From the NCBI RefSeq assembly GCF_000346485.2, contig NZ_KQ976354.1, forward strand, positions 10,870,341 through 10,934,340: a stretch of DNA of 64,000 bases, written 5' to 3'. Below are positions 27,500-63,460 of the stretch, one piece after another. Made by a program: the position numbers and the translations under genes. How positions within the stretch are numbered: position 1 is the first letter of the stretch; every line of letters begins with the position of its first letter. The DNA comes from Scytonema hofmannii PCC 7110. Lineage in GTDB: Bacteria; Cyanobacteriota; Cyanobacteriia; Cyanobacteriales; Nostocaceae. The notes under the pieces are model-generated. The model was given only the letters and a program-made list of their open reading frames with translations. It searched no databases and was not told the origin of the DNA.

Positions 27500-27501
27500 A
27501 C

Positions 27502-27557
27502 CAGTGACCAGTGACCAGTGACCAGTGACCAGTGACCAGTGACCAGTGACCAGTGAC
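27502..27557. repeat. eight perfect CCAGTGA heptamers
   Basis: Eight exact tandem CCAGTGA units occupy nearly the whole murT-gatD gap. This is the longest uninterrupted run of this heptamer in the window. Confidence 0.95.
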
Positions 27558-39835: not shown

Positions 39836-40818
39836 GTAGGTTGGGTTGAGGAACGAAACCCAACATTGAACCGAATCGTTGGGTTTCGTTCCCAGGAGGT
39901 TCTTGCGATCGCAAACCCAACACGGAACCGAATTGTTGAGTTTGGTTCCCAGGAGGTTCTTGCGATCGCAAACCCAACACGGAACCGAATTGTTGAGTTT
40001 GGTTCCCAGAAGGTTCTTGCGATCGCAAACCCAACACAGAACCGAATTGTTGAGTTTGGTTCCCAGGAGGTTCTTGCGATCGCAAACCCAACACGGAACC
40101 GAATTGTTGAGTTTGGTTCCCAGGAGGTTCTTGCGATCGCAAACCCAACACAGAACCGAATTGTTGAGTTTGGTTCCCAGGAGGTTCTTGCGATCGCAAA
40201 CCCAACACGGAACCGAATTGTTGAGTTTGGTTCCCAGAAGGTTCTTGCGATCGCAAACCCAACACAGAACCGAATTGTTGAGTTTGGTTCCCAGGAGGTT
40301 CTTGCGATCGCAAACCCAACACGGAACCGAATTGTTGAGTTTCGTTCCCAGAAGGTTCTTGCGATCGCAAACCCAACACGGAACCGAGTTGTTGGGTTTG
40401 GTTCCCAGGAGGTTCTTGCGATCGCAAACCCAACACGGAACCGAATTGTTGAGTTTCGTTCCCAGAAGGTTCTTGCGATCAGAAACCCAACACGGAACCG
40501 AATTGTTGAGTTTCGTTCCCAGAAGGTTCTTGCGATCGCAAACCCAACACGGAACCGAGTTGTTGGGTTTGGTTCCCAGGAGGTTCTTGCGATCGCAAAC
40601 CCAACACGGAACCGAGTTGTTGGGTTTGGTTCCCAGGAGGTTCTTGCGATCGCAAACCCAACACGGAACCGAGTTGTTGGGTTTGGTTCCCAGGAGGTTC
40701 TTGCGATCGCAAACCCAACACGGAACCGAGTTGTTGGGTTTGGTTCCCAGGAGGTTCTTGCGATCGCAAACCCAACACGGAACTGAATCGTTGGGTTTCG
40801 TTCCTCAACCCAACCTAC
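39836..40818. repeat. sixteen 57-bp tandem repeats inside an inverted-repeat-bounded element
   Basis: GCGATCGC octamers recur at exact 57-bp spacing from 39905 to 40760 (16 units; the eleventh, at 40475, is mutated to GCGATCAG). Each unit also has GGTTCCCAGGAGGTTCTT and AAACCCAACACGGAACCG. The array is closed by GTAGGTTGGGTTGAGG at 39836 and its inverse, CCTCAACCCAACCTAC, at the right end. Because 57 is a multiple of three, long frames are open on both strands; I regard them as artefacts. Confidence 0.95.
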
Positions 40819-49705: not shown

Positions 49706-49752
49706 ATCTTAAAAATAGGGAGTAGGGAGTAGGGAGTAGGGAGTAGGGAGTA
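49706..49752. repeat. GGGAGTA heptamer repeat
   Basis: Six exact GGGAGTA heptamers lie between the EAD1 adaptor and the nucleosidase gene. The two genes read in the same direction across it. Confidence 0.9.
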
Positions 49753-49782
49753 GGAGTTTTGCCACATTATATATCAGTTGCC

Positions 49783-52599: not shown

Positions 52600-54828
52600 A
52601 TGACTCAAAAAAAATCCCTAAAAATTCTCCTTTTAGCGGCTAATCCTAAAAACACTCTACGCCTAGAGGAAGAAGTACACGCAATTAAAGCTGTACTGAA
52701 ACGAGATAAAAACCGAGAGAGATTTGAAATCATTACTAAGTTGATTGTACGTGTGGATGACTTGCGCCGCGCCTTGTTGGACTATGCGCCAAAGATTGTT
52801 CATGTTTTCGGACATGGAGCAGGAGAGCATGGACTTGCTCTTGAGGATTCTACAGGAGTCACACAGTTTGTGAGTCATAAATCTTTGGCAAGGCTATTTG
52901 AATTGTTTGCTAACTTAGTAGAGTGCGTGCTACTTGATGGTTGTTATTCTGAAATACAAGCTAATGCGATCGCTCAAAATATTTCCTACGTGATTGGGAT
53001 TAGCCGAGAAAGAGATTTTGCGGCTTTAGATTTTGCAGCTAGTTTTTATGATGCTTTGGCTACCGGGCGTTCAATTGAGGAAGCTTATCAATTTGGTAGT
53101 GCGGCGATCTCACTTAGAAGAGGAGATGTTTCAGAATGCTTAACCCCAATACTTGTAAAGAGGGGTCAACTGAAATTACAAGAATATGACCGAGCTACAA
53201 AGCGCTATGAAGAAGAATTTTCACAAGCGATACAGCAAGAATGTCCTCTGAGTGAGGAAAGCCGTCTGAGATTAAATCGTTTGCGATCGCTTTTAAGAAT
53301 TCGGGACGAAGATGCAGAAGCAATTGAAACAAGAGTAAATGATCTTCAAGAGATGTGCCTATCTCTGCAGTCTCAATCTATTAGAAATTATCAACGTCTA
53401 GCACAAGCAATTCTACGGCGGATAGGTGCTACAGATATAACTCCCATTTCATCTCCACAATTTCCTGAAGGTAGTCTTTGGGATATGACTCTCCCCTCCA
53501 CTGGTTTGCAACTCCCAACACAAAGCGCTATTTTTTATTTGAATCAAGAAACTGACTCTATACCCAATGACCAACTTCAACAAATTACTCAACAACGAGA
53601 AGGAGCTTTCTTAATTTGTGCCTCAGTAACTAATAATTGTCCTCATCGACTAACGCCATTACCAGTCATCTGGTTGAGTTCCTCATCTTTAATCGAAATG
53701 ATTGCAACTCCAGACAACGACCTTCTTGTTTGGTTAGCTAGGTTTTTGTTTGGACAAATTAACGTAGTTGCCTTACCTGGTATGCTACCGTATAAAACCA
53801 GGGGGATTGCTAAACTGTTTTTTGGACGAGAGAATGAATTGGCACGCATAACGAGTGGCGATCAAAGAGGGGGAATTATTATTGGTGCTCACCGTAGTGG
53901 CAAAACCTCTTTTTTGGAGAAGCTAAAGGAAAAATTACAACAACGGTTCTGTAAGGTCATTGGTCCTCTAACATTTTTCGAGTTCCAGTCTTTTTTTAAA
54001 GACACATTAGATCCCGTAGGAAAAAGCTATTTTACAGGGATGAGCATACAAGATTGGTCTTCAGCTTTGAAAATCTTTAGTATAAATAACCCAGATTGTC
54101 GCCTCATCTTTCTCTTAGATGAAGTAGACAAAATGATTCAAGAGGATATCAAAATTGACTCAAGTTTAGGACAAATGATGCGAGCGTTGCAAAACGGAGG
54201 TTTCTGTGAGTTCTTTCTTGCTGGTCATGCAAAATTGCGCGAAGCAATTGCCATAGAAGGTGGACCATTTCGCAACTTTGCAGAAGAAATTACACTGACA
54301 GGACTCACACAAGAATCTGCAATAGACTTGATTCAGAGACCTATGAAATTATTGGGATTTGAGGTTTCCGATCTTCAAGCTAATCGTATTTATCAAGGAA
54401 CTGCAGGTGTAGCAGTCTTAATTCAAGAGTTTTGTCTCCAACTATTAGATGCTCTTCGTCAAAGTGGTGTATCGGAAATCAGTGATGCGATGATTGAAGA
54501 GGTTGAGCAATGTCCTGGGTTTCTGGATATTGTGTTCGAGCATTACAGATACGCTCAAACATGGGATTCTATGGCAATTACTCTCTTTACTGCTATGAAG
54601 GGAGAGGTACAAAGAAAAGATATTACAGAAGTTTTCCAACAGTATGGAATTGATTTAAAAAGAGATCGACTCGATAGAGCACTGGATTTTCTTAGCCGAT
54701 TTGGGGTCTTGCAAAAATTCAGATATAGTTTTTACCGCGTGTTATCCGGTTATTTAATAGATGCCATAAAAGCGAATGACCCCGAATCTCTTTTGGAATC
54801 AGAATTAGACAAAGGGAGGGTAGCCTAA
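52600..54828 (+). CDS. CHAT protease-like and AAA/STAND ATPase protein
   Basis: CHAT domains are caspase-like proteases used by bacterial immune systems. Here the CHAT fold spans 1-190, with catalytic H72 in VFGHGAGEHG and C115 in LLDGCYSEIQ. A helical linker (200-280) follows, then an ATPase with Walker A GAHRSGKTS (429-437) and Walker B LIFLLDEVD (502-510), and a winged-helix-like end. The CHAT half is close to the CHAT at 59839. The next gene starts in the stop codon (TAATG), so the pair is coupled. Activation by ATPase-driven assembly is inference from family logic. Confidence 0.85.
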   Translation: MTQKKSLKILLLAANPKNTLRLEEEVHAIKAVLKRDKNRERFEIITKLIVRVDDLRRALLDYAPKIVHVFGHGAGEHGLALEDSTGVTQFVSHKSLARLFELFANLVECVLLDGCYSEIQANAIAQNISYVIGISRERDFAALDFAASFYDALATGRSIEEAYQFGSAAISLRRGDVSECLTPILVKRGQLKLQEYDRATKRYEEEFSQAIQQECPLSEESRLRLNRLRSLLRIRDEDAEAIETRVNDLQEMCLSLQSQSIRNYQRLAQAILRRIGATDITPISSPQFPEGSLWDMTLPSTGLQLPTQSAIFYLNQETDSIPNDQLQQITQQREGAFLICASVTNNCPHRLTPLPVIWLSSSSLIEMIATPDNDLLVWLARFLFGQINVVALPGMLPYKTRGIAKLFFGRENELARITSGDQRGGIIIGAHRSGKTSFLEKLKEKLQQRFCKVIGPLTFFEFQSFFKDTLDPVGKSYFTGMSIQDWSSALKIFSINNPDCRLIFLLDEVDKMIQEDIKIDSSLGQMMRALQNGGFCEFFLAGHAKLREAIAIEGGPFRNFAEEITLTGLTQESAIDLIQRPMKLLGFEVSDLQANRIYQGTAGVAVLIQEFCLQLLDALRQSGVSEISDAMIEEVEQCPGFLDIVFEHYRYAQTWDSMAITLFTAMKGEVQRKDITEVFQQYGIDLKRDRLDRALDFLSRFGVLQKFRYSFYRVLSGYLIDAIKANDPESLLESELDKGRVA

Positions 54829-57080
54829 TGCCAACCCTGATTGAGCGTCTACAGTTGAGAAAAGATTTATGCGAAATTTTAAAATCCGATTATGTTGCGT
54901 TATTAGGTCAACGTGGTAGTGGTAGTCGAACACTGATTCATTTGATGACCACACATACTTCTCCTTTACCTAGTATGAAATTCCTTGCTGTTGCTCTCCC
55001 TCAAGGGGTACAAAACAGCGAACAATTCATGGAGAGATTCCTCAATAACTTGATTGATGCATCTACCCAAATTCCTCCACAACCAGAATTAACCGACAAA
55101 GTTAGGCAAACTCTCAAGCAAGAGGCAGAATTTTCTGTTGTCTTTCGCTTGAGAAGTGTTTTGGATGTTTTGGGCAAAAATTCTGCTACTAATTATTTGG
55201 TTATTGTTTTACACGCTTTAGCTGATATCTCAGAGCAACCATTAAAAGACTTGCTCATCTTACTACGTGAATATCACAAGCAGATAGGAATTCCTAACTT
55301 AGGTGGTGAAAAATTACGTTTTTTGGTAGTAGGAGGTGTTCGTTTATGGAATCTTTGCTGTCATAAACCTTCTGATTTTGAATCTCCTTTCAATATTGCC
55401 AAACGATATTTTATTGGGGGTCTTTCTTACAAGGAGGTTCAAAGTCAATTTAACGATATGAAAATTGAGCAAGCCATAAAGTTAACCGATTTGACTGATG
55501 GAGTTCCTTCATTGATTGACTTGATTAGTCAGGAAGCAGAAGATTTTGAAGATTTATCTAGTTGTTTTGGTCCTCTAGAAAATAGTTGGAACTCATTGTC
55601 AGATGCTGCTCAAGCGGCTTTAATAAACTTAGCAAAAATTGCTCAAATTTTTCCTGGCTGTCAACTGGATTTTGAATGTCCGCAAATTCCCAAGTTTTCC
55701 GAGCTAACAGTTTGGCAAGAAGCATTTTGGGGAGGTTTTTTAAGGCTAAGACATCGGAAATTAACATGGCGATCGCCCATCCATAAAGCATTTATCATGA
55801 CTCAAGCAGAGATCGAGGAAGATATTTGTAAATCTACCCTACTTAGAAATCATTTGCTAGAAAGAGTCACGAGCTTAGAAAATGCTTTCAGAAGTTCGAT
55901 GAATACAAAAGCGTTAGCTGAATGTATCGAAGAATTAGTTTCTCTTTCTTTACACTCAGGCAATGTTGAATTAGTTTCTTTGCTAGAGATGATGCTAGAA
56001 CGAAAGCCAAGAGATGCGATCTTAATGGAGTTAAAAAATATAGCCGCCAAATCTTTTAACCCATGGATTAAAGATTTAACAAAATTGATAGCAGAGTCTC
56101 CAGAATTTTTTAACAAACGGCTTATTGAGGCTGTAATGCGCGGCTCTACTTGTGACATGAGGATGGGTACTAAGCAACAGGTCTTTATGCCGATTTTTGA
56201 CGATAGTATTATCCCATATGATTCCGAGCAAGAACTATTAGAGTATCAAGAAGAAGAGCAACCTTGGTTTATTCAAGATCTTCCAAAAACTACAGCGATC
56301 GCTTCAGAAGAGTCAGAAATTTATCAAGAAAAAATTGAAGTGGTGATTATTACAGCAACAGATGTAGAACTTAAGGCGGTAACACGCTATCTCAAACCTT
56401 TTCCACCTCGGAAGAGAGTACTGCTACTATATTCGGGGGCTGAGACATATTATCTAGGAAAATTTGGAGCTTTTCCCACCGTAGTTACCAAGTGTCGTAT
56501 GGGTGCAATTGGAGAAGGGTCAGTTATTCTAGCTACAGAACAAGCTCAACGTCTATGGCACCCGAAGGCAGTTATTATGGTTGGGATTGCATTTGGTAAA
56601 GATGCAACAACACAAAAGATTGCAGATGTATTAGTAGCTTCTGAAATAATTTCTTACGAACAGCAACGCATTGGAGAGGAGATAATTTATCGGGGCAGCA
56701 TTCCCCCTAGTAATACTATACTACTTAATCGGTTTGAAAATTCACAAAATTGGAAATTCTCACGTCCTGATGGCTCATATTCTGAGGTAATTTTTGGTTC
56801 TATTTTGTCGGGTGAAAAATTGGTAGATAACCCGGAATTCAAAGCAAAGCTTTTTCAGACCTTTCCAGACGCAATTGGTGGAGAAATGGAAGGAGCAGGT
56901 CTTTGTGCTGCTTCAGGACGTATGGGTACAGCATGGATTTTAGTTAAATCTATTTATGACTGGGCGGATGGAAAAAAAGATGATAAGCATCAAGCTTTAG
57001 CTGCAGCCGCCGCCGCTTCATTAGTTCATTACGTATTATCTCAATCAACTGTCTTAAATGGTTTGAACAAAATTTATTGA
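54828..57080 (+). CDS. degenerate ATPase fused to nucleoside phosphorylase domain
   Basis: The first 300 residues look like the ATPase of a conflict protein, but the P-loop is GQRGSGSRT (27-35), with Ser where the catalytic Lys should be, and the Walker B region reads YLVIVLHALADIS without the acidic pair. The ATPase is therefore probably inactive and may serve as a scaffold. A helical region follows (about 330-480). From about residue 502 there is a nucleoside phosphorylase domain (VVIITATDVELKAV, GAIGEGSVILATEQAQ, GGEMEGAGLCAASG, SIYDWADGKK) with the catalytic Glu and Asp intact. It is cotranscribed with the CHAT-ATPase, overlapping by one base. Confidence 0.82.
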   Translation: MPTLIERLQLRKDLCEILKSDYVALLGQRGSGSRTLIHLMTTHTSPLPSMKFLAVALPQGVQNSEQFMERFLNNLIDASTQIPPQPELTDKVRQTLKQEAEFSVVFRLRSVLDVLGKNSATNYLVIVLHALADISEQPLKDLLILLREYHKQIGIPNLGGEKLRFLVVGGVRLWNLCCHKPSDFESPFNIAKRYFIGGLSYKEVQSQFNDMKIEQAIKLTDLTDGVPSLIDLISQEAEDFEDLSSCFGPLENSWNSLSDAAQAALINLAKIAQIFPGCQLDFECPQIPKFSELTVWQEAFWGGFLRLRHRKLTWRSPIHKAFIMTQAEIEEDICKSTLLRNHLLERVTSLENAFRSSMNTKALAECIEELVSLSLHSGNVELVSLLEMMLERKPRDAILMELKNIAAKSFNPWIKDLTKLIAESPEFFNKRLIEAVMRGSTCDMRMGTKQQVFMPIFDDSIIPYDSEQELLEYQEEEQPWFIQDLPKTTAIASEESEIYQEKIEVVIITATDVELKAVTRYLKPFPPRKRVLLLYSGAETYYLGKFGAFPTVVTKCRMGAIGEGSVILATEQAQRLWHPKAVIMVGIAFGKDATTQKIADVLVASEIISYEQQRIGEEIIYRGSIPPSNTILLNRFENSQNWKFSRPDGSYSEVIFGSILSGEKLVDNPEFKAKLFQTFPDAIGGEMEGAGLCAASGRMGTAWILVKSIYDWADGKKDDKHQALAAAAAASLVHYVLSQSTVLNGLNKIY

Positions 57081-57475: not shown

Positions 57476-58456
57476 TTAAGAATTTACTAAATCTACATAA
57501 AAATTGCGTAATTTAGGGTTATCAGGATTAGCTCTTTTTGCAGCTTCTAAAAGTTCTATGAGTTTTTCCCGATCTTCTGCATAATCAATTAAACTAAACA
57601 CAATGTCTTCATAATTGTTTCCACCAACTATTTGATTTAAATTCCAATCTAACTTATCACTCAGCATCATCTCTAAAGAGTTTTTACTACGAAAAGCATC
57701 CATCAAAGCATCAATAAATTGTTTCTTTTGAGACCCTAATAAATGAAATGGTTCTAGTAAATTTGGTGAGGACGCTCCTTGACTTTCAGACTTTTTAATA
57801 GAATTCAGTACAGTTTTTTGAGACAACACATGATGTACAAGTGAAGTCGCCGCCGCCGCCGCTAAAGGTTGATGTTGTTTGTGTTTTTTGCCATCACCCC
57901 AATTGCAGATAGACTTGACTAAAATCCATGCTGTACCTATGCGCCCAGATGCAGCACAAAGTCCAGCCCCTTCCATTTCTCCTCCCACTGCTTGGGGAAA
58001 CTGCTGAAACAGGGCGGCTTTGAATTCTGGATTGTCAACTAATTTTTCTCCAGATAAAATCGGATTAACAATCAGGTTGCAATGTGAACCGTCAGGACGA
58101 GTGAACTTCCAATTTTGAACGTTTTCAAAACGATTCAGCAATGTTGTGTTACTTGGTGGAATGCTACCGCGATAAACAATTTCTTCCCCTATGCGCTGTT
58201 GTTCGTAGAAGATAATTTTGGAAGCAACCAACACATCTGCTATCTTTTGCTGTAAAACTTTTTTCCGGCGAGGATATGGCTGGAGTAACTTTGCTACCGC
58301 TTTCAGTTCAACTTCTGTTGCAGTGATGATGACAACATCAATTTTGTCTTTGAGTGACTTACATCCCTCTTGATTGATTTCTTCTGTTTCCGGAAGATTA
58401 GGTGCATACCAAGATTGTCTCTCAATCTCATAGTTTTGCTCTCCGTGACTCATCAT
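57476..58456 (-). pseudogene. decayed nucleoside phosphorylase-EAD1 protein
   Basis: The frame is intact but the enzyme core is not. Compared with the copy at 49783, 62 residues are missing between KKVL and QKIADV (junction near 58250), an in-frame deletion that removes GSIGEGSVILATEQAQ and VIMVGIAFG. The catalytic Asp of SICDWGDG is Asn (SICNWGDG). The N-terminal helical domain of the paralog is also absent. A C-terminal EAD1 follows the phosphorylase remnant (LLGSQKKQFIDALMDAFRS). It could still act as an adaptor or decoy through EAD1, but not as a nucleosidase. The start is ATG at 58456. Confidence 0.75.
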
Positions 58457-58733
58457 CCTCACTAAGCTGAAAGAATCAAAACTTTCCTATGACTTACACA
58501 ACTGGCATAAAGTGCGAGTGGGCAGACAGCCATGCGGCAATTAAAATTAGACCAAACACATATGAATTTTATAAGTGTTGTGCTAAGTGAGTAAGAGTAT
58601 AGTTGATTTGACTGCTCAAGTAAATATTGGCAATAATCTAACTTTGTAAAGTTCATCAACACGTTAAGCCTTACGCAAAGAAACCGGGTTTCTCGACTCT
58701 TACAAATCATTCAAGATTGCTATACTTCCGGAA

Positions 58734-59618
58734 TTATGACTGACTCAGGTGAGGTAAGTTTATCGGGAATTGCACAACTCGAAACCCAATGTTATTACCC
58801 TTGTCGTCTGGCTCGAGATGGAAGCGAAATGCCGAACGACAAAACCACGGGGTAAAGTCCCAAGAACCACCACGCAGTACTACTCTACTACGATCCCTAG
58901 AATTTAACCAAGCACTACCATCTGTAGGTGCTCCTTCATAGTTTTCATGCCAATGGTCAGCACACCATTCCCACAGTAACCCATGCATATCGTACAATCC
59001 AAAGGCGTTTGCTACCCCAAAACTGCCTACAGGTGTTGTCTCTCCACGATATTTCCCTTTAGGACTATCACCATAAGTATTAACACCGTTATAATTCACT
59101 AAATCGGTAGTAATTGTGTCACCAAAGTGGAACGGAGTTGTTGTGTTAGCACGGCATGCGTATTCCCACTCTGACTCACTTGGAAGACGGTAAGTACGTC
59201 CGGTGTATTTTGATAGTCTGTCACAAAATTCCACGGCTTCATACCATGATATTGTTTCTACAGGGCGATCGCTCGTTTTAAATCTAGATGGATCGGGATC
59301 GAGTTCGCAATTGACTCGTTCAAAAGTTGCAACCATTTGCCATTGTTCTTGGGTAATATGATACTTCCCCATGAAAAAAGGTTGAATTGTGACCTGGTGT
59401 AAGGGTCGCTCGGAGTCTTCGCTGCTACATTCTGCTTCAGAAGCACCCATTGTGAATGTACCGCCAGGAATAGCAACCATGTCTAGAGTAACGCCATTAC
59501 CAAAGTCTTCCGTTAAAGACTGAACTTGACGCTGTTCTTGGTTAACGATCTCGCCCTTAGCATTAACGGTAGCGACATCAAATGAAAAAGAGGTGACTTG
59601 CTTCGACCTTAAATCCAT
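58734..59618 (-). CDS. FGE-sulfatase (SUMF1-like) domain protein
   Basis: The 294-residue protein has the formylglycine-generating-enzyme fold: MVAIPGGTFTMGASEAE, HQVTIQPFFMGKYHITQEQW, YRLPSESEWEYACRANTTTP, FGLYDMHGLLWEWCADHW, VVLRGGSWDFTPWFCRSAFRF and GFRVV at the end. Only one Cys sits where true FGE has a redox pair. The first 45 residues (FSFDVATVNAKGEIVNQEQR) are a beta-rich lead seen in related cyanobacterial proteins. In conflict systems this fold commonly serves as a ligand-binding or effector partner. A 33-bp fragment of a second copy survives at 51221. Confidence 0.82.
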   Translation of the reverse strand: MDLRSKQVTSFSFDVATVNAKGEIVNQEQRQVQSLTEDFGNGVTLDMVAIPGGTFTMGASEAECSSEDSERPLHQVTIQPFFMGKYHITQEQWQMVATFERVNCELDPDPSRFKTSDRPVETISWYEAVEFCDRLSKYTGRTYRLPSESEWEYACRANTTTPFHFGDTITTDLVNYNGVNTYGDSPKGKYRGETTPVGSFGVANAFGLYDMHGLLWEWCADHWHENYEGAPTDGSAWLNSRDRSRVVLRGGSWDFTPWFCRSAFRFHLEPDDKGNNIGFRVVQFPINLPHLSQS

Positions 59619-59838: not shown

Positions 59839-60582
59839 ATGATCAAAAAAATCCTTATCCTATCAGCAAATCCAAAGAACACAAGCAAGCTGCGTTTAGA
59901 TGAAGAGGTACGGGAAATACAAGCGGGTTTGGAACGTGCCAAAGCTAGAGAACAGTTTGAAATTATTACGAGATGGGCAGTTCGCATTGAAGACTTGTAT
60001 CGAGCTTTGTTAGATTACCAACCACAGATTGTCCATTTTTCCGGACATGGGGTAGGAAGTGATGGCTTGGCTTTAGAAAATAACTCTGGAGAACTGCAAT
60101 TAGTTAGCACGCAATCTCTAGCAGGATTATTTGAATTGTTTAAGGAAACTATTGAGTGTGTTTTCTTGAATGCTTGCTATTCTGAAACGCAAGCTGAAGC
60201 AATTCACCAACATATAAATTATGTAGTTGGTATGAGCCAGACTATTAACGATCGCGCAGCCATTGATTTTGCTAAAGGGTTTTATGATGCACTTGGAGCA
60301 GGGAAATCCTATGAGTTTGCTTACAAATTTGGCTGTCATGCGATCGCTCTACAAGGAATTTCGGAGTTAGAAGCCCCAGTCTTAAAAAGTAGGGAAAGTG
60401 CAGTTTCTGTTAACAGTGCAACAAATTCCAACCAAGAATCTAATTTAGGGAATACAAAAGAGCGATCGACACAAGAAAATCAGCAAGAATCAGCTTTACC
60501 AAATATCAACCAACAGGCTGGAGATAACGCGATTCAATTTGGACACATCGGACAAGCTGGAAATCTGAACTTTCATCGCTAG
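59839..60582 (+). CDS. CHAT caspase-like protein with C-terminal amyloid (RHIM-like) motif
   Basis: Residues 1-185 form a CHAT protease-like domain with H70 (HFSGHGVGSDG) and C113 (FLNACYSETQ), close to the domain at 52600. A polar linker (185-225, rich in Ser, Asn and Gln) ends in a motif at 227-246: AGDNAIQFGHIGQAGNLNF. The AIQFG core resembles the I/V-Q-x-G core of RHIM amyloids and the bacterial amyloid signalling sequences found at the ends of effectors beside STAND receptors. The next gene begins 11 bp later and carries the matching motif at its N-terminus. I infer that the CHAT protein is the effector of that receptor. Confidence 0.85.
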   Translation: MIKKILILSANPKNTSKLRLDEEVREIQAGLERAKAREQFEIITRWAVRIEDLYRALLDYQPQIVHFSGHGVGSDGLALENNSGELQLVSTQSLAGLFELFKETIECVFLNACYSETQAEAIHQHINYVVGMSQTINDRAAIDFAKGFYDALGAGKSYEFAYKFGCHAIALQGISELEAPVLKSRESAVSVNSATNSNQESNLGNTKERSTQENQQESALPNINQQAGDNAIQFGHIGQAGNLNFHR

Positions 60583-60592
60583 AATTAAGATT

Positions 60593-63460
60593 ATGCAGGG
60601 TACTATTTCACAGTCGGCTGGCAACCATGCTATTCAGTTTGGATACGTTGGACAGATAGAATCCTTGTCTGTTGATAATAGAAGTCAGCAAGCAACTGGT
60701 AATGGTATCCTTCAAGTTCAAATTGGCTCGATTACAGGAAGTACCGTCAATGTCTCCCATGGGGAACAGCAACAATCTCCACAACTTCGTTCTCTTCCTG
60801 TCCTTTTAGTTCCCCGTTCTTTTCCCTTATTGTTAGGTCGTCGGGAAGAAGTGAAAGTTGCAGTGAATGCTCTACCCTATGACCAACCAGTAGAATTCTA
60901 TGGTTCCCCAGGGATAGGAAAAACAGCATTACTGAGACATCTAGCTCATCATCCCTCAATAACTCCTGCTTTCTCCGATGGGATTGTTTACCATCACTCA
61001 ACTCGTCACCAACCAGTTTCCGATTTGCTCCAAATTCTTTTCAATGCTTTTCATGAAAGTAGCGTTCCTTTTAAATCAACAGATATTCAAATACGTCATG
61101 CTTTCCAGGAAAAAAGAATTCTTATTATATTAGAAGTTGCAAAGCTCAATGGAGAAGAATTAGAAAATCTACTCAATAGCTTACCGAGTTGTACTTTTCT
61201 TGTCACTTCACAAGAACGCCAATTGTGGGGAGAAGGACACTCTGTAGGACTCCACGGACTGCACTTAAATGATGCGGTGTCTCTTGTTGCAAGAGAACTG
61301 GGGCGCACTCTTAGCCCGGAAGAACGCCTTGTTGCAGAAAAACTTTGCACTGCTTTACAGGGACATCCATTGCGAATCCTGCAAACAGTCGCGCTTGTCA
61401 GAGAGGACAATATTTCGCTAGCACTTATGCAAGAGCGAATACAATCTACCACTTCAACTCTAGGCTGGGTTGAACAACTTCTGGCTTCCTTACAAAAACC
61501 ACAGAAGTTAATTGTCACGGCATTAGCAGCTTTGGGTGGTGTAGCCTTGGGAGTAGAATTGCTAGAAAATTTAACTGAAATTCCACAAGTCAAGCTTGTG
61601 CTAGAAACATTAACACGGCGTAACTTATTGCAAGTTGATGGTTCGCGTTACAGTTTAAGTAACAACTTGATTGAGTACATTCAACAACACTGGAACTTAA
61701 CACCTTTTTTGGAGAAGGCTACAACATACTTCACCACTTGGATTCAACAACAAACAACTCCACAAAGTTTATTAGAAGAATGTGATGCCATTCTCCAAGT
61801 TTTAGAGTGGGCTGTCAAAGTTGGTCGCTGGTCTGACGTGATTTGCTTGGGAAGAGGTATAGAAGGTACACTTGCTTTGAGTGGGCAATGGGGTACGTGG
61901 CAAATAGTGCTGCAGCATCTGCTTCAGGCGGCGCGTGTTCTTGGAGACCCAGCAGTTGAAGCTTTTGCCTTACATCAATTAGGAACTCGTTCTCTTTGTC
62001 TGAGTGAAGTCACGCAAGCACGAGATTATTTAACACAAGCGCTTCGTATTAGAGAATCTCTGAATGACCAAATTGGAGCGGAAGTCACCCGTCACAATCT
62101 GGAATTTCTTTTGGAACCCCCTTTACCACCTCAGACCAAGCCACAATCTGAATCCGCCGTTAGTCCACCACGTACACGCGATCCATTGTTGTTTAAAGGT
62201 AGTCTTGCTGTTTTACTCTTAACACTAGGGGGATTGCTGTTCCTCATTCTATGGTTTTTGTACTCAAAGCCACAAGCCCAAGACTACTCAACAACTCAGA
62301 TTCCCATCCCAAGCAAAACTCCCGTCCCAACTGAGACTCCTATCCAAACAACACCTCCTACCACAACTCCCGTCCCAACTGAGACTCCTATCCAAACAAC
62401 ACCTCCTACTGAAACTCCCGTCCCAACTCCAACTCACAGCCCAACAATAACTCAGCCTGAAACTCCAACCCTCCAATCTTTATCTCTCAATCAAAGCAGT
62501 GTCATTGGGGGTGCAACTGTGGAGGGAAGAGTCATTCTCAGCCATCCAGCACCAGAAAGTGGTGTTATAGTCAATCTCAATAGTCGCAATTCATCTCTTG
62601 CTAGAGTTGCACCGTCATCTTTGAAAGTTGAGGCTGGGAATAAAGAAGCTTCATTTGAAATCTTCACGTCTTCTGATGGCAATAACTCCTTAAATGCTGG
62701 CATTGTTGAAATTACAGCTACCTATGCAGGAGTAACTAGAATAACATCGCTGATGATTGAATCCGAAAAGCTTCCAAAACCAGAAATCAGCTCTATAAGG
62801 CTAGAACAAGGACGCATACCTTGGGGTAAAAAGGTGAAGGGAGCAGTCACTCTCAAGAGCACAGCACCAGATGATGGCGTTATCATTATTTTTACCAGTG
62901 ATGAGCCATCTCTTGCCACAATCTTACCGTCATCGCTGAAAATTGAAGCTGGAAACACAACAGCTCCTTTTGAGGTCTTAACTTCTATGAACGATCGCAA
63001 TTTCCTAAAAGATAAAATTGTTGAAATTGCAGCATCTTTGGAAGGAGGAGAGTCCCGTCAGACGGAAAAACTGTCTATTTATACAGAGAATATTTCCCCT
63101 AGACTTCAATCGTTACACGTAGAGAATGGTAATGGAGTTAAAATTGAGAGTCTAACTTGGAGTCGAAGAATAACGACCGTGCAAGGAAAACTGACTCTCA
63201 ATCAACCAGATCCTAACAGAGATATTGCGATCGCACTCACTGGCAGAAATGTGAAAGTGCAGGAAACCGTGACAGTGAAAGCAGGTGAAACTACGGCAAT
63301 ATTTCCAATTAGAATCTTAGGATTTGATGAAAATCAGCAACCCATCAACTTTGTAGAAATCAAAGCTTCCTATAAGAAAATGACTGTAACCGCAACTTTG
63401 AAAGTTGTGAAGATAGTACCGAAAATTCCTTTAATCAAAGTCCCTCTTCGATCCCCTTAG
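60593..63460 (+). CDS. NB-ARC (STAND) receptor with amyloid motifs, membrane span and Ig-like repeats
   Basis: The 955-residue protein has these parts in order. Two amyloid-like motifs come first: AGNHAIQFGYVGQI (9-22), matching the CHAT protein's tail, and ILQVQIGSITGSTVNV (39-54) with a VQIG core. An NB-ARC NTPase follows with Walker A GSPGIGKT (104-111), a weak Walker B (ILIILEVA, 176-183), the sensor strand TFLVTSQERQLW and GHPL at 257-260. Then come a winged helix (about 300-365), a short helical region, a membrane helix (about 536-557), a Pro/Thr linker with PVPTETPIQTTPP repeats (570-625), and three Ig-like beta repeats (627-722, 729-832, 836-940). The usual cytoplasmic TPR or WD40 sensor is replaced by repeats that would face the periplasm. 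The gene begins 11 bp after the CHAT gene. Confidence 0.85.
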   Translation: MQGTISQSAGNHAIQFGYVGQIESLSVDNRSQQATGNGILQVQIGSITGSTVNVSHGEQQQSPQLRSLPVLLVPRSFPLLLGRREEVKVAVNALPYDQPVEFYGSPGIGKTALLRHLAHHPSITPAFSDGIVYHHSTRHQPVSDLLQILFNAFHESSVPFKSTDIQIRHAFQEKRILIILEVAKLNGEELENLLNSLPSCTFLVTSQERQLWGEGHSVGLHGLHLNDAVSLVARELGRTLSPEERLVAEKLCTALQGHPLRILQTVALVREDNISLALMQERIQSTTSTLGWVEQLLASLQKPQKLIVTALAALGGVALGVELLENLTEIPQVKLVLETLTRRNLLQVDGSRYSLSNNLIEYIQQHWNLTPFLEKATTYFTTWIQQQTTPQSLLEECDAILQVLEWAVKVGRWSDVICLGRGIEGTLALSGQWGTWQIVLQHLLQAARVLGDPAVEAFALHQLGTRSLCLSEVTQARDYLTQALRIRESLNDQIGAEVTRHNLEFLLEPPLPPQTKPQSESAVSPPRTRDPLLFKGSLAVLLLTLGGLLFLILWFLYSKPQAQDYSTTQIPIPSKTPVPTETPIQTTPPTTTPVPTETPIQTTPPTETPVPTPTHSPTITQPETPTLQSLSLNQSSVIGGATVEGRVILSHPAPESGVIVNLNSRNSSLARVAPSSLKVEAGNKEASFEIFTSSDGNNSLNAGIVEITATYAGVTRITSLMIESEKLPKPEISSIRLEQGRIPWGKKVKGAVTLKSTAPDDGVIIIFTSDEPSLATILPSSLKIEAGNTTAPFEVLTSMNDRNFLKDKIVEIAASLEGGESRQTEKLSIYTENISPRLQSLHVENGNGVKIESLTWSRRITTVQGKLTLNQPDPNRDIAIALTGRNVKVQETVTVKAGETTAIFPIRILGFDENQQPINFVEIKASYKKMTVTATLKVVKIVPKIPLIKVPLRSP

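What the first reader, a model, noticed from the sequence alone, without database searches (positions are those of the whole stretch)
62160..63460. NB-ARC receptor with a membrane span and three periplasm-facing Ig-like repeats
STAND receptors normally sense with cytoplasmic TPR, LRR or WD40 repeats. This one has a TM helix (about 536-557), a Pro/Thr stalk with tandem PVPTETPIQTTPP units, and three Ig-like repeats. That suggests sensing of an envelope or phage-surface signal outside the cytoplasm, passed inward to the amyloid/NTPase part.
Basis: partly seen in the sequence, partly recalled or inferred. Interest (0 to 1): 0.8.

Follow-up and report, generated by a model that had tools for sequence, protein, structure and literature searches.

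The report
Membrane-spanning bacterial NLR-like receptor with protease partner
A bacterium, very likely a filamentous cyanobacterium, carries an immune-receptor-like switch protein that appears to cross the cell membrane, with three antibody-like domains predicted outside and a short motif inside that it shares with a neighbouring protease-like protein, which suggests a way for bacteria to sense trouble at the cell surface.

Summary
ORF 60593-63460 (955 aa) is an NB-ARC/STAND switch (best structural match Apaf-1) with a helical/TPR region, one predicted TM helix (534-557), a Pro/Thr stalk and three Ig-like sandwiches (nearest intimin D00-D0, tied with GH2 Ig-like domains). It is not a one-off: in a 25-protein family, 20 have a strongly hydrophobic segment (KD 1.7 or more) after the helical region, against 0 of 31 other NB-ARC proteins of this genome. 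What follows varies: Ig-like, Big_9/cadherin-like, HYDIN/ASH, Pro-rich tails, or 21 residues. A remote Streptomyces plasmid protein has the same order. The upstream gene (59839-60582) is a CHAT protease homologue whose C-terminus repeats the receptor's N-terminal RHIM-like motif. In all 4 genomes with a linked pair that were searched, the only two full-length motif copies are these neighbours; in one of them the protease is replaced by a small protein bearing the same motif. Two relatives have no partner. Best reading: a membrane-anchored STAND receptor passing its signal to a CHAT executioner by motif templating. Outside sensing by the Ig domains is plausible but unproven; anchoring remains a serious rival. 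New variant of known amyloid-NLR signalling.

The parts
59839..60582 (+). CHAT (caspase-HetF-like) protease homologue, 247 aa, probable effector
   Evidence: Pfam CHAT 1.2e-11, 45 bits against a cut-off of 24; PADLOC chat 2.7e-22; HFSGHG (aa 66) and LNACYS (aa 110) motifs, with S/C variation in the first, in 4 of 4 CHAT homologues checked, this one included
60502..60579 (+). C-terminal RHIM-like motif of the effector (NINQQAGDNAIQFGHIGQAGNLNFHR)
   Evidence: Aligned with the receptor motif; one of two full-length motif hits in this genome
60593..63460 (+). Receptor gene, 955 aa, starts 10 nt after the effector's stop
   Evidence: the gap is 9 nt in the four other linked pairs (coordinates)
60602..60676 (+). 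N-terminal RHIM-like motif of the receptor (TISQSAGNHAIQFGYVGQIESLSVD), aa 4-28, predicted disordered
60803..61687 (+). NB-ARC/STAND NTPase with winged helix, aa 71-365; P-loop GSPGIGKT at 60902-60925
   Evidence: Pfam NB-ARC 23.1 bits against a cut-off of 23.5, 23.5 bits in the genome search; Apaf-1 3sfz Z 25.4
61688..62113 (+). Helical/TPR region, aa 366-507
   Evidence: TPR_12 weak; TPR-containing solved chains; model helices; STAND-TPR 6mfv Z 24.4
62192..62263 (+). Single transmembrane helix, aa 534-557
62264..62467 (+). Pro/Thr stalk, aa 558-625, predicted disordered, 16-aa tandem units
62468..62764 (+). Ig-like repeat 1, aa 626-724
62783..63088 (+). Ig-like repeat 2, aa 731-832
63101..63412 (+). 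Ig-like repeat 3, aa 837-940

Best explanation
A two-gene signalling pair. The receptor is a type II (N-in, C-out) membrane STAND/NB-ARC switch; its stalk and Ig-like repeats reach into the periplasm or cell wall, its NTPase and N-terminal RHIM-like motif lie in the cytoplasm. A change outside (ligand, envelope damage, contact or phage adsorption) or, alternatively, at the TPR region lets the NTPase exchange nucleotide and cluster at the membrane; clustered motifs take an amyloid-like fold and template the same motif on the adjacent CHAT protease, activating it by proximity and killing or arresting the cell. Shown here: order of domains, predicted TM and Ig folds, matched motif pair, effector replacement. 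Inferred: topology, amyloid formation, CHAT activation, outcome. Weakest step: that the trigger is outside.
For: Hydrophobic segment of KD at least 1.7 after the helical region in 20 of 25 family members, against 0 of 31 other NB-ARC proteins of this genome scanned over their whole length; AF2 helix at 534-557. Ectodomain-type domains follow the segment: Big_9/Cadherin or HYDIN/ASH over their cut-offs in 6 of 18 family members scanned. Motif pair: in 12 genomes searched, full-length hits are exactly the receptor and its adjacent effector in 4 (G000, G330, G242, G309), the receptor alone in 2, none in 6 (the profile was built from these same copies, so what counts is the absence of others). Effector replacement under the same motif in L053. 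Apaf-1-like switch. Between window and L009, Ig repeat 3 changes faster than the NTPase: 44% identity, dN 0.44 against 74.5%, dN 0.14; dS 1.1 and 0.8.
Against: No ligand is known. Receptors L043 and L041 have no detectable partner motif in genomes 96% and 98% complete (L041 is cut by a contig end). L062/L063 end 21 aa after the segment and four members carry only Pro/Thr tails, so an ectodomain is dispensable in the family. In four members (L042, L049, L054, L055) the segment scores only 1.26-1.37, no more than the usual maximum of the control proteins, and rests on alignment alone; hydropathy also marks core segments of 1.7 or more in 10 of 25 members. Charge bias is modest: 13 proteins favour N-in, 3 the reverse, 8 tie, one not counted, and several are near-copies. 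The linker+TM stretch changes as fast as the Ig repeat (44.4% identity, dN 0.47), which fits relaxed constraint better than sensing.
Confidence: 0.48

Rival explanations
1. Anchor/spacer: the TM, stalk and Ig repeats only tether the switch to the envelope or peptidoglycan and set its position; the trigger is cytoplasmic, read by the TPR region, as in ordinary STANDs.
For: Ectodomain type and length vary (21 to 614 aa after the segment) while the segment's place after the helical region is kept; repeat number is 1, 2 or 3 in the motif clade; the linker+TM stretch changes as fast as Ig repeat 3; structural matches include S-layer and adhesin domains. PMC7159879 (passages) reads comparable TM plus wall-binding fusions as placing systems near the membrane.
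Against: Nothing decisive. The motif clade keeps one kind of Ig-like repeat in 6 of 6 full-length members, more than an arbitrary spacer would need.
Confidence: 0.31
2. Contact or kin receptor: the Ig repeats bind like repeats or surface polymers on neighbouring cells of the filament or on competitors, so the pair monitors cell-cell contact rather than phage.
For: Repeats resemble intimin, among other Ig-like domains; Big_9/cadherin-like modules take their place in relatives; the named organisms with members or remote members are a Nostocales cyanobacterium and Streptomyces.
Against: No binding evidence; Ig folds are generic.
Confidence: 0.15
3. Inside-out: the NTPase controls the exposure or clustering of a surface adhesin, and the CHAT gene is an independent neighbour.
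For: The ectodomain has an adhesin-like fold; two of seven receptors of the clade lack a linked effector.
Against: The matched motif on the adjacent effector, kept when the effector itself is replaced, ties the switch to an intracellular effector.
Confidence: 0.05

Closest known systems
NLR/BASS amyloid signalosomes of filamentous bacteria (Dyrka et al. 2020, not seen; reviewed in PMC7889193, passages)
   Same: Short RHIM-related motif at the NLR N-terminus and at the C-terminus of an effector encoded next door; effectors are mostly Bell, less often CHAT or TIR.
   Different: The NLR here has a TM helix and an Ig-like array after the TPR region. Which BASS family the motif falls in was not tested.
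Apaf-1 and STAND-TPR proteins (3sfz, 6mfv)
   Same: NB-ARC, winged helix and helical repeats superpose (Z 25.4 and 24.4); a caspase-like homologue is the probable effector.
   Different: Those are soluble and sense in the cytoplasm (recalled).
Multicellular-prokaryote conflict systems with TM and extracellular domains (PMC7159879 and PMC8195603, passages)
   Same: Conflict NTPase systems with TM segments and cadherin, PASTA, CHASE2 or periplasmic-binding domains; EAD1 and formylglycine-enzyme-type genes lie beside our locus.
   Different: The passages read describe GTPase (GAP1), iSTAND ternary and EACC components, not an NB-ARC receptor paired by a RHIM-like motif.
STAND targets of diversity-generating retroelements in Thiohalocapsa (PMC10907252, passages)
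   Same: One STAND system there is predicted to have a periplasmic lectin-type sensor target.
   Different: C-type lectin domains varied by a retroelement; a retroelement was not searched for here.
PASTA-type bacterial Ser/Thr kinases (recalled)
   Same: Cytoplasmic enzyme, one TM, extracytoplasmic repeat array.
   Different: Kinase instead of an NB-ARC switch; works-like only.

Membership tests
STAND / NB-ARC | P-loop NTPase of NB-ARC type | tested here: met
   GSPGIGKT P-loop; Apaf-1 Z 25.4 over 420 residues. By Pfam only borderline: window 23.1 of 23.5 bits, 23.5; over the cut-off in 7 of 18 family members scanned (L009, L043, L047, L050, L052, L053, L061), below it or not listed in 11
STAND / NB-ARC | Nucleotide-driven oligomerisation | not testable with these tools
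   -
NLR/BASS amyloid signalosome | Similar short motif at receptor N-terminus and adjacent effector C-terminus | tested here: met
   5 of 7 motif receptors have a linked partner; 4 of 4 searched genomes with a linked pair hold exactly two full-length motif hits, adjacent
NLR/BASS amyloid signalosome | Match to one of the ten BASS profiles | not testable with these tools
   Profiles not held
NLR/BASS amyloid signalosome | Motif forms amyloid | not testable with these tools
   -
CHAT protease | CHAT domain with His-Cys dyad motifs | tested here: met
   (45 bits, cut-off 24); that these motifs hold the dyad is recalled
Bacterial Ig-like domain | Ig-type beta-sandwich | tested here: met
   pLDDT 93.4; intimin D00-D0 Z 11.7, tied with GH2 Ig-like domains
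Bacterial Ig-like domain | A named Pfam Ig-like (Big) family | tested here: not met
   No Pfam family up to E 0.1 for aa 528-955
Single-pass membrane receptor | One TM helix | tested here: met
   hydropathy also marks aa 306-324, which the model puts inside the switch
Single-pass membrane receptor | C-terminus outside | tested here: inconclusive
   K/R 61 before, 36 after; types of ectodomain
Single-pass membrane receptor | Ligand-driven signalling | not testable with these tools
   -
Known anti-phage system (PADLOC 2.0) | Specific model match of the receptor | tested here: not met
   Only TPR 0.0061 and mad8 0.014

The most novel reading that the evidence does not exclude
Some bacteria have a class of transmembrane NLR-like receptors in which an apoptosome-type switch is wired directly to swappable surface modules (Ig-like, cadherin-like, HYDIN-type), and in one clade passes the surface signal by RHIM-like templating to a caspase-like or membrane-active executioner: a one-protein counterpart of a surface immune receptor and a death-receptor/apoptosome relay.
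Probability: 0.35. Interest if true: 0.85.

Novelty: new variant of a known kind. Interest (0 to 1): 0.6.

Why it matters
NLR-type receptors are thought of as cytoplasmic sensors. A family with a TM and exchangeable extracytoplasmic modules would give bacteria a surface-to-death pathway within one receptor, and makes the question whether bacterial NLRs can sense outside the membrane directly testable by topology fusions and ectodomain swaps. The private motif pair and its replaced effector also offer a natural test of amyloid templating specificity.

Tried and rejected
Rejected: chance hydrophobic stretch (28 of 2000 whole-protein shuffles reach KD 2.72; the segment recurs behind the helical region in the family). 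Rejected: fusion or assembly artefact (same order in L009, L044, L052, L053). Rejected: a general feature of this genome's NB-ARC proteins (3 of 31 reach KD 1.6, namely L067 at 1.61 inside the NTPase, L082 at 1.62 with two charged residues behind it, L084 at 1.68 far behind it, judged by eye as part of a beta-propeller; none reaches 1.7). Rejected: repeats copied from another protein of this genome (no other BLAST match to E 1). Hydropathy also marks aa 306-324 (2.19); the model puts that stretch inside the switch, so I do not count it as TM; 10 of 25 family members have such a core segment of 1.7 or more, so hydropathy alone is not specific.

Led nowhere: no NCBIfam family reached its cut-off for the receptor (best HaaT-type TPR 2.6e-10, 39 of 1125 bits); PADLOC named no system for it; the PDB sequence search gave mostly TPR proteins and a DotF match over the TM/stalk; the viral structure library gave generic phage proteins with Ig-like folds. 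A strict pattern for the pre-NTPase beta element matched 7 of 25 family members and 0 of 31 others, and missed the window itself, so it was dropped. dN/dS failed for repeat 2 and repeat 1 against L009's first repeat. Literature searches listed no paper whose title or abstract start names a bacterial NB-ARC receptor with TM and Ig-like ectodomain; only the top listings were seen, and the library lacks most subscription papers; the Dyrka 2020 paper was not among the listings.

Odds: on re-checking I lowered the best explanation from 0.50 to 0.48, raised the anchor rival from 0.30 to 0.31 and lowered interest from 0.62 to 0.60, because the linker+TM stretch changes as fast as the Ig repeat and because core segments also score as hydrophobic.
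Full report
WHAT IS THERE. The ORF at 60593..63460 + encodes 955 aa. Sequence profiles find a P-loop NTPase of NB-ARC type at the border of Pfam's cut-off (23.1 of 23.5 bits; 23.5 bits in the genome search) and weak TPR matches. An AlphaFold2 model from 23 family members (mean pLDDT 79.9) shows aa 1-31 disordered, a well-predicted NTPase, winged helix and helical repeats to about aa 507, one helix at 534-557, a disordered stalk to 625, and three beta-sandwiches. Among solved structures, Apaf-1 fits best (Z 25.4 over 420 residues), then, among others, a STAND-TPR protein, 6mfv (Z 24.4). A model of repeat 1 alone (pLDDT 93.4) fits intimin D00-D0 (Z 11.7, rmsd 1.9, 88 residues), tied with Ig-like domains of GH2 enzymes; Foldseek's own first rows are pilus chaperones with TM-scores near 0.5. 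No Pfam family reaches E 0.1 for aa 528-955. The repeats are Ig-like by fold, without a named family.

HOST. The one named close relative, L009 (71% identity in the best segment), is Iningainema tapete, a Nostocales cyanobacterium, so I take the host to be a cyanobacterium of that kind (inference).

IS THE MEMBRANE HELIX REAL. The segment aa 538-556 has a Kyte-Doolittle mean of 2.72; 28 of 2000 shuffles of the protein reach that. The stronger arguments are the model and comparison. A first search with the whole protein gave 105 of 291 order genomes with a match at 0.001, mostly to the NTPase, TPR or Pro-rich part alone. A profile of the core built from 13 proteins (A2) finds matches at E up to 1e-30 in 18 of 388 genomes drawn from the order and 10 of 386 drawn from the phylum (6 genomes shared; four candidates scored per genome, so further copies may be missed). 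The best hydrophobic stretch after the core is KD 1.7 or more in 20 of 25, 1.68 in L051, and only 1.26-1.37 in L042, L049, L054 and L055, where the segment rests on alignment alone (the L043 row was mis-set and is corrected). As control I took the 31 other NB-ARC proteins found in this genome (33 hits less the window and L042; 150 of 293 candidates were scored there). Over their whole length 0 of 31 reaches 1.7 and 3 reach 1.6: L067 (1.61, inside the NTPase), L082 (1.62) and L084 (1.68). Hydropathy is not perfect: 10 of 25 family members also have a segment of 1.7 or more inside the core, among them the window at 306-324, which the model places inside the switch.

TOPOLOGY. Lys+Arg in the 20 residues before and after the segment sum to 61 and 36 (25 rows with L043 at 0/0 through the mis-set row); 13 proteins have more before, 3 more after, 8 tie, L043 is not counted. 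Some rows are near-copies, so these are not independent. This modestly favours N-in. An ATP-using switch with a motif shared with an effector that shows no TM segment (best KD 1.02) points the same way (inference). In cyanobacteria the membrane could also be the thylakoid; nothing here decides that.

THE ECTODOMAIN IS A SWAPPABLE MODULE. Behind the same core and segment I find: the new Ig-like repeat (three copies in the window and L044, two in L009, one in L043, L052 and L053); Big_9/Cadherin_5 repeats (L048, L040, and by eye the near-copy L045); HYDIN/ASH domains over cut-off (L048, L054, L058, L060, L061), weaker in L046; Pro/Thr-rich tails (L042, L055, L056, L057); unassigned tails (L047, L050, L051); an HYDIN-like tail cut short, by eye (L049); and only 21 residues (L062, L063). 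L059 is a near-copy of L058. Pfam was run on 18 of the 25; L042, L045, L056, L057, L059, L062 and L063 were not scanned, and labels there are by eye. On a tree of the cores, 8 labels of ectodomain need 8 changes against a shuffled mean of 15.8 (0 of 200 shuffles as low); the ASH label needs 3 changes, and the motif clade forms one set with the long-branched L051 (7 rows, 97/99). So types mostly follow clades and have changed several times. Three of 72,556 plasmid records match the core. Two Streptomyces proteins match over 87-89% of it at 26-28% identity; one has a hydrophobic segment (KD 2.09), then a choice-of-anchor D domain (7.6e-17) and a CARDB domain (1.1e-4, just over its cut-off); the other has a segment of 1.91 and a tail without a Pfam match to E 0.1. 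At that identity they are remote relatives; the arrangement seems not confined to cyanobacteria.

THE PARTNER. The upstream gene ends 10 nt before the receptor's start and is a CHAT gene (59839..60582 +; Pfam 1.2e-11) with HFSGHG and LNACYS motifs, with S/C variation in the first, in 4 of 4 CHAT homologues (that these hold the His-Cys dyad is recalled). Its last 26 residues, NINQQAGDNAIQFGHIGQAGNLNFHR, match the receptor's start, TISQSAGNHAIQFGYVGQIESLSVD. I searched 12 of the 22 genomes with family members: the 6 known to hold a motif-bearing receptor, and 6 without. The motif profile gives exactly two full-length hits, adjacent, in G000, G330, G242 and G309; one (the receptor) in G253 and G118; none in the other 6. 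Three further hits at E 0.09-0.8 are 9 to 13 residues long. The profile was made from these same copies, so the finding is the absence of others, not the hits. The I. tapete pair is linked as well. In G309 (L053) the neighbour is not CHAT but a 143-aa protein with no Pfam match to E 0.1, a hydrophobic N-terminal stretch (KD 1.6) and the same C-terminal motif. That resembles the Bell effectors described in PMC7889193 (passages), which also says that BASS motifs occur, less often, on CHAT and TIR proteins. The gap between the genes is 10, 9, 9, 9 and 9 nt in the five linked pairs. Against this, L043 and L041 have a sulfotransferase-like gene upstream (my reading, not searched) and no partner was found.

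HOW IT MOST LIKELY WORKS. The pair has the anatomy of an amyloid NLR signalosome: switch, short RHIM-like motif, effector with the same motif. The new element is the membrane span and Ig array. Between window and L009 the NTPase is 74.5% identical (dN 0.14, dS 0.81), the helical part 73.1% (dN 0.18), the CHAT protein 69% (dN 0.20, dS 1.26), but Ig repeat 3 only 44% (dN 0.44, dS 1.12), repeat 2 38% against L009's first repeat (dN/dS failed), and the linker+TM stretch 44% (dN 0.47). The outward part changes about three times faster than the switch. That fits a sensor under changing pressure; since the linker and TM change as fast, it fits loose constraint at least as well. I put outside-in sensing ahead of anchoring, but not by much.

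WHAT IS KNOWN. Passages of PMC7159879 and PMC8195603 describe conflict systems of multicellular prokaryotes with TM segments and extracellular cadherin, PASTA, CHASE2 or periplasmic-binding domains, and suggest that they work at the membrane; PMC10907252 (passages) predicts a periplasmic sensor target in one STAND system. PMC8086366 and PMC9815663 (passages) describe the BASS motifs further. So the idea of envelope-facing conflict proteins is in print. I did not see an NB-ARC receptor with this order of domains in the listings. I therefore rate it a new variant of a known kind.

CONTEXT. The flanking genes fit a conflict island: a PNP-type nucleosidase protein (54828-57080), an EAD1 protein with a shortened PNP part (57476-58462, minus strand) and a formylglycine-enzyme-type protein (58734-59618, minus strand). 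This is suggestive only; PADLOC names no system for the receptor.

Noticed in passing
window 57476-58462 (-): EAD1 protein whose PNP-nucleosidase match starts at model position 88 and, compared by eye with the PNP protein at 54828-57080, lacks an internal stretch of about 75 residues; possibly an inactivated effector copy.
   Followed up: no
window 39856-40804: 16.6 tandem copies of a 57-nt unit containing GCGATCGC.
   Followed up: no
window-wide, e.g. 27500-27557, 49716-49754: Many arrays of 7-nt tandem repeats.
   Followed up: no
window 60707-60754 (aa 39-54) and family N-termini: A second RHIM-like or beta-hairpin element (ILQVQIGSITGSTVNV; in relatives such as L048, L050, L056 VGxxxxQIGSxxGxxV) sits just before the NTPase in many family members, also ones without the paired motif; blurred in L044, L052, L053. 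Could be an older adaptor motif; my one pattern test was too strict to judge.
   Followed up: partly
L050, L048, L040, L045, L046, L047, L049, L054, L058-L061, N-termini: Twelve family members carry, by eye, a similar N-terminal domain of about 100 aa (LELAKQGNLEAIETLINxxLxPQGITAKVG...) in place of the paired motif; Pfam scans of 10 of them listed nothing there.
   Followed up: no
L097:2251-3303 (Streptomyces plasmid): A 350-aa protein with no Pfam match to E 0.1 directly precedes the Streptomyces TM receptor, its end overlapping the next start by one base, and may be its effector.
   Followed up: no
L052 and L053 stalks: Stalks are built of many near-perfect tandem units (STDTNPSNTNSS; TETSTPTQ and the like), so stalk length may vary quickly.
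   Followed up: no
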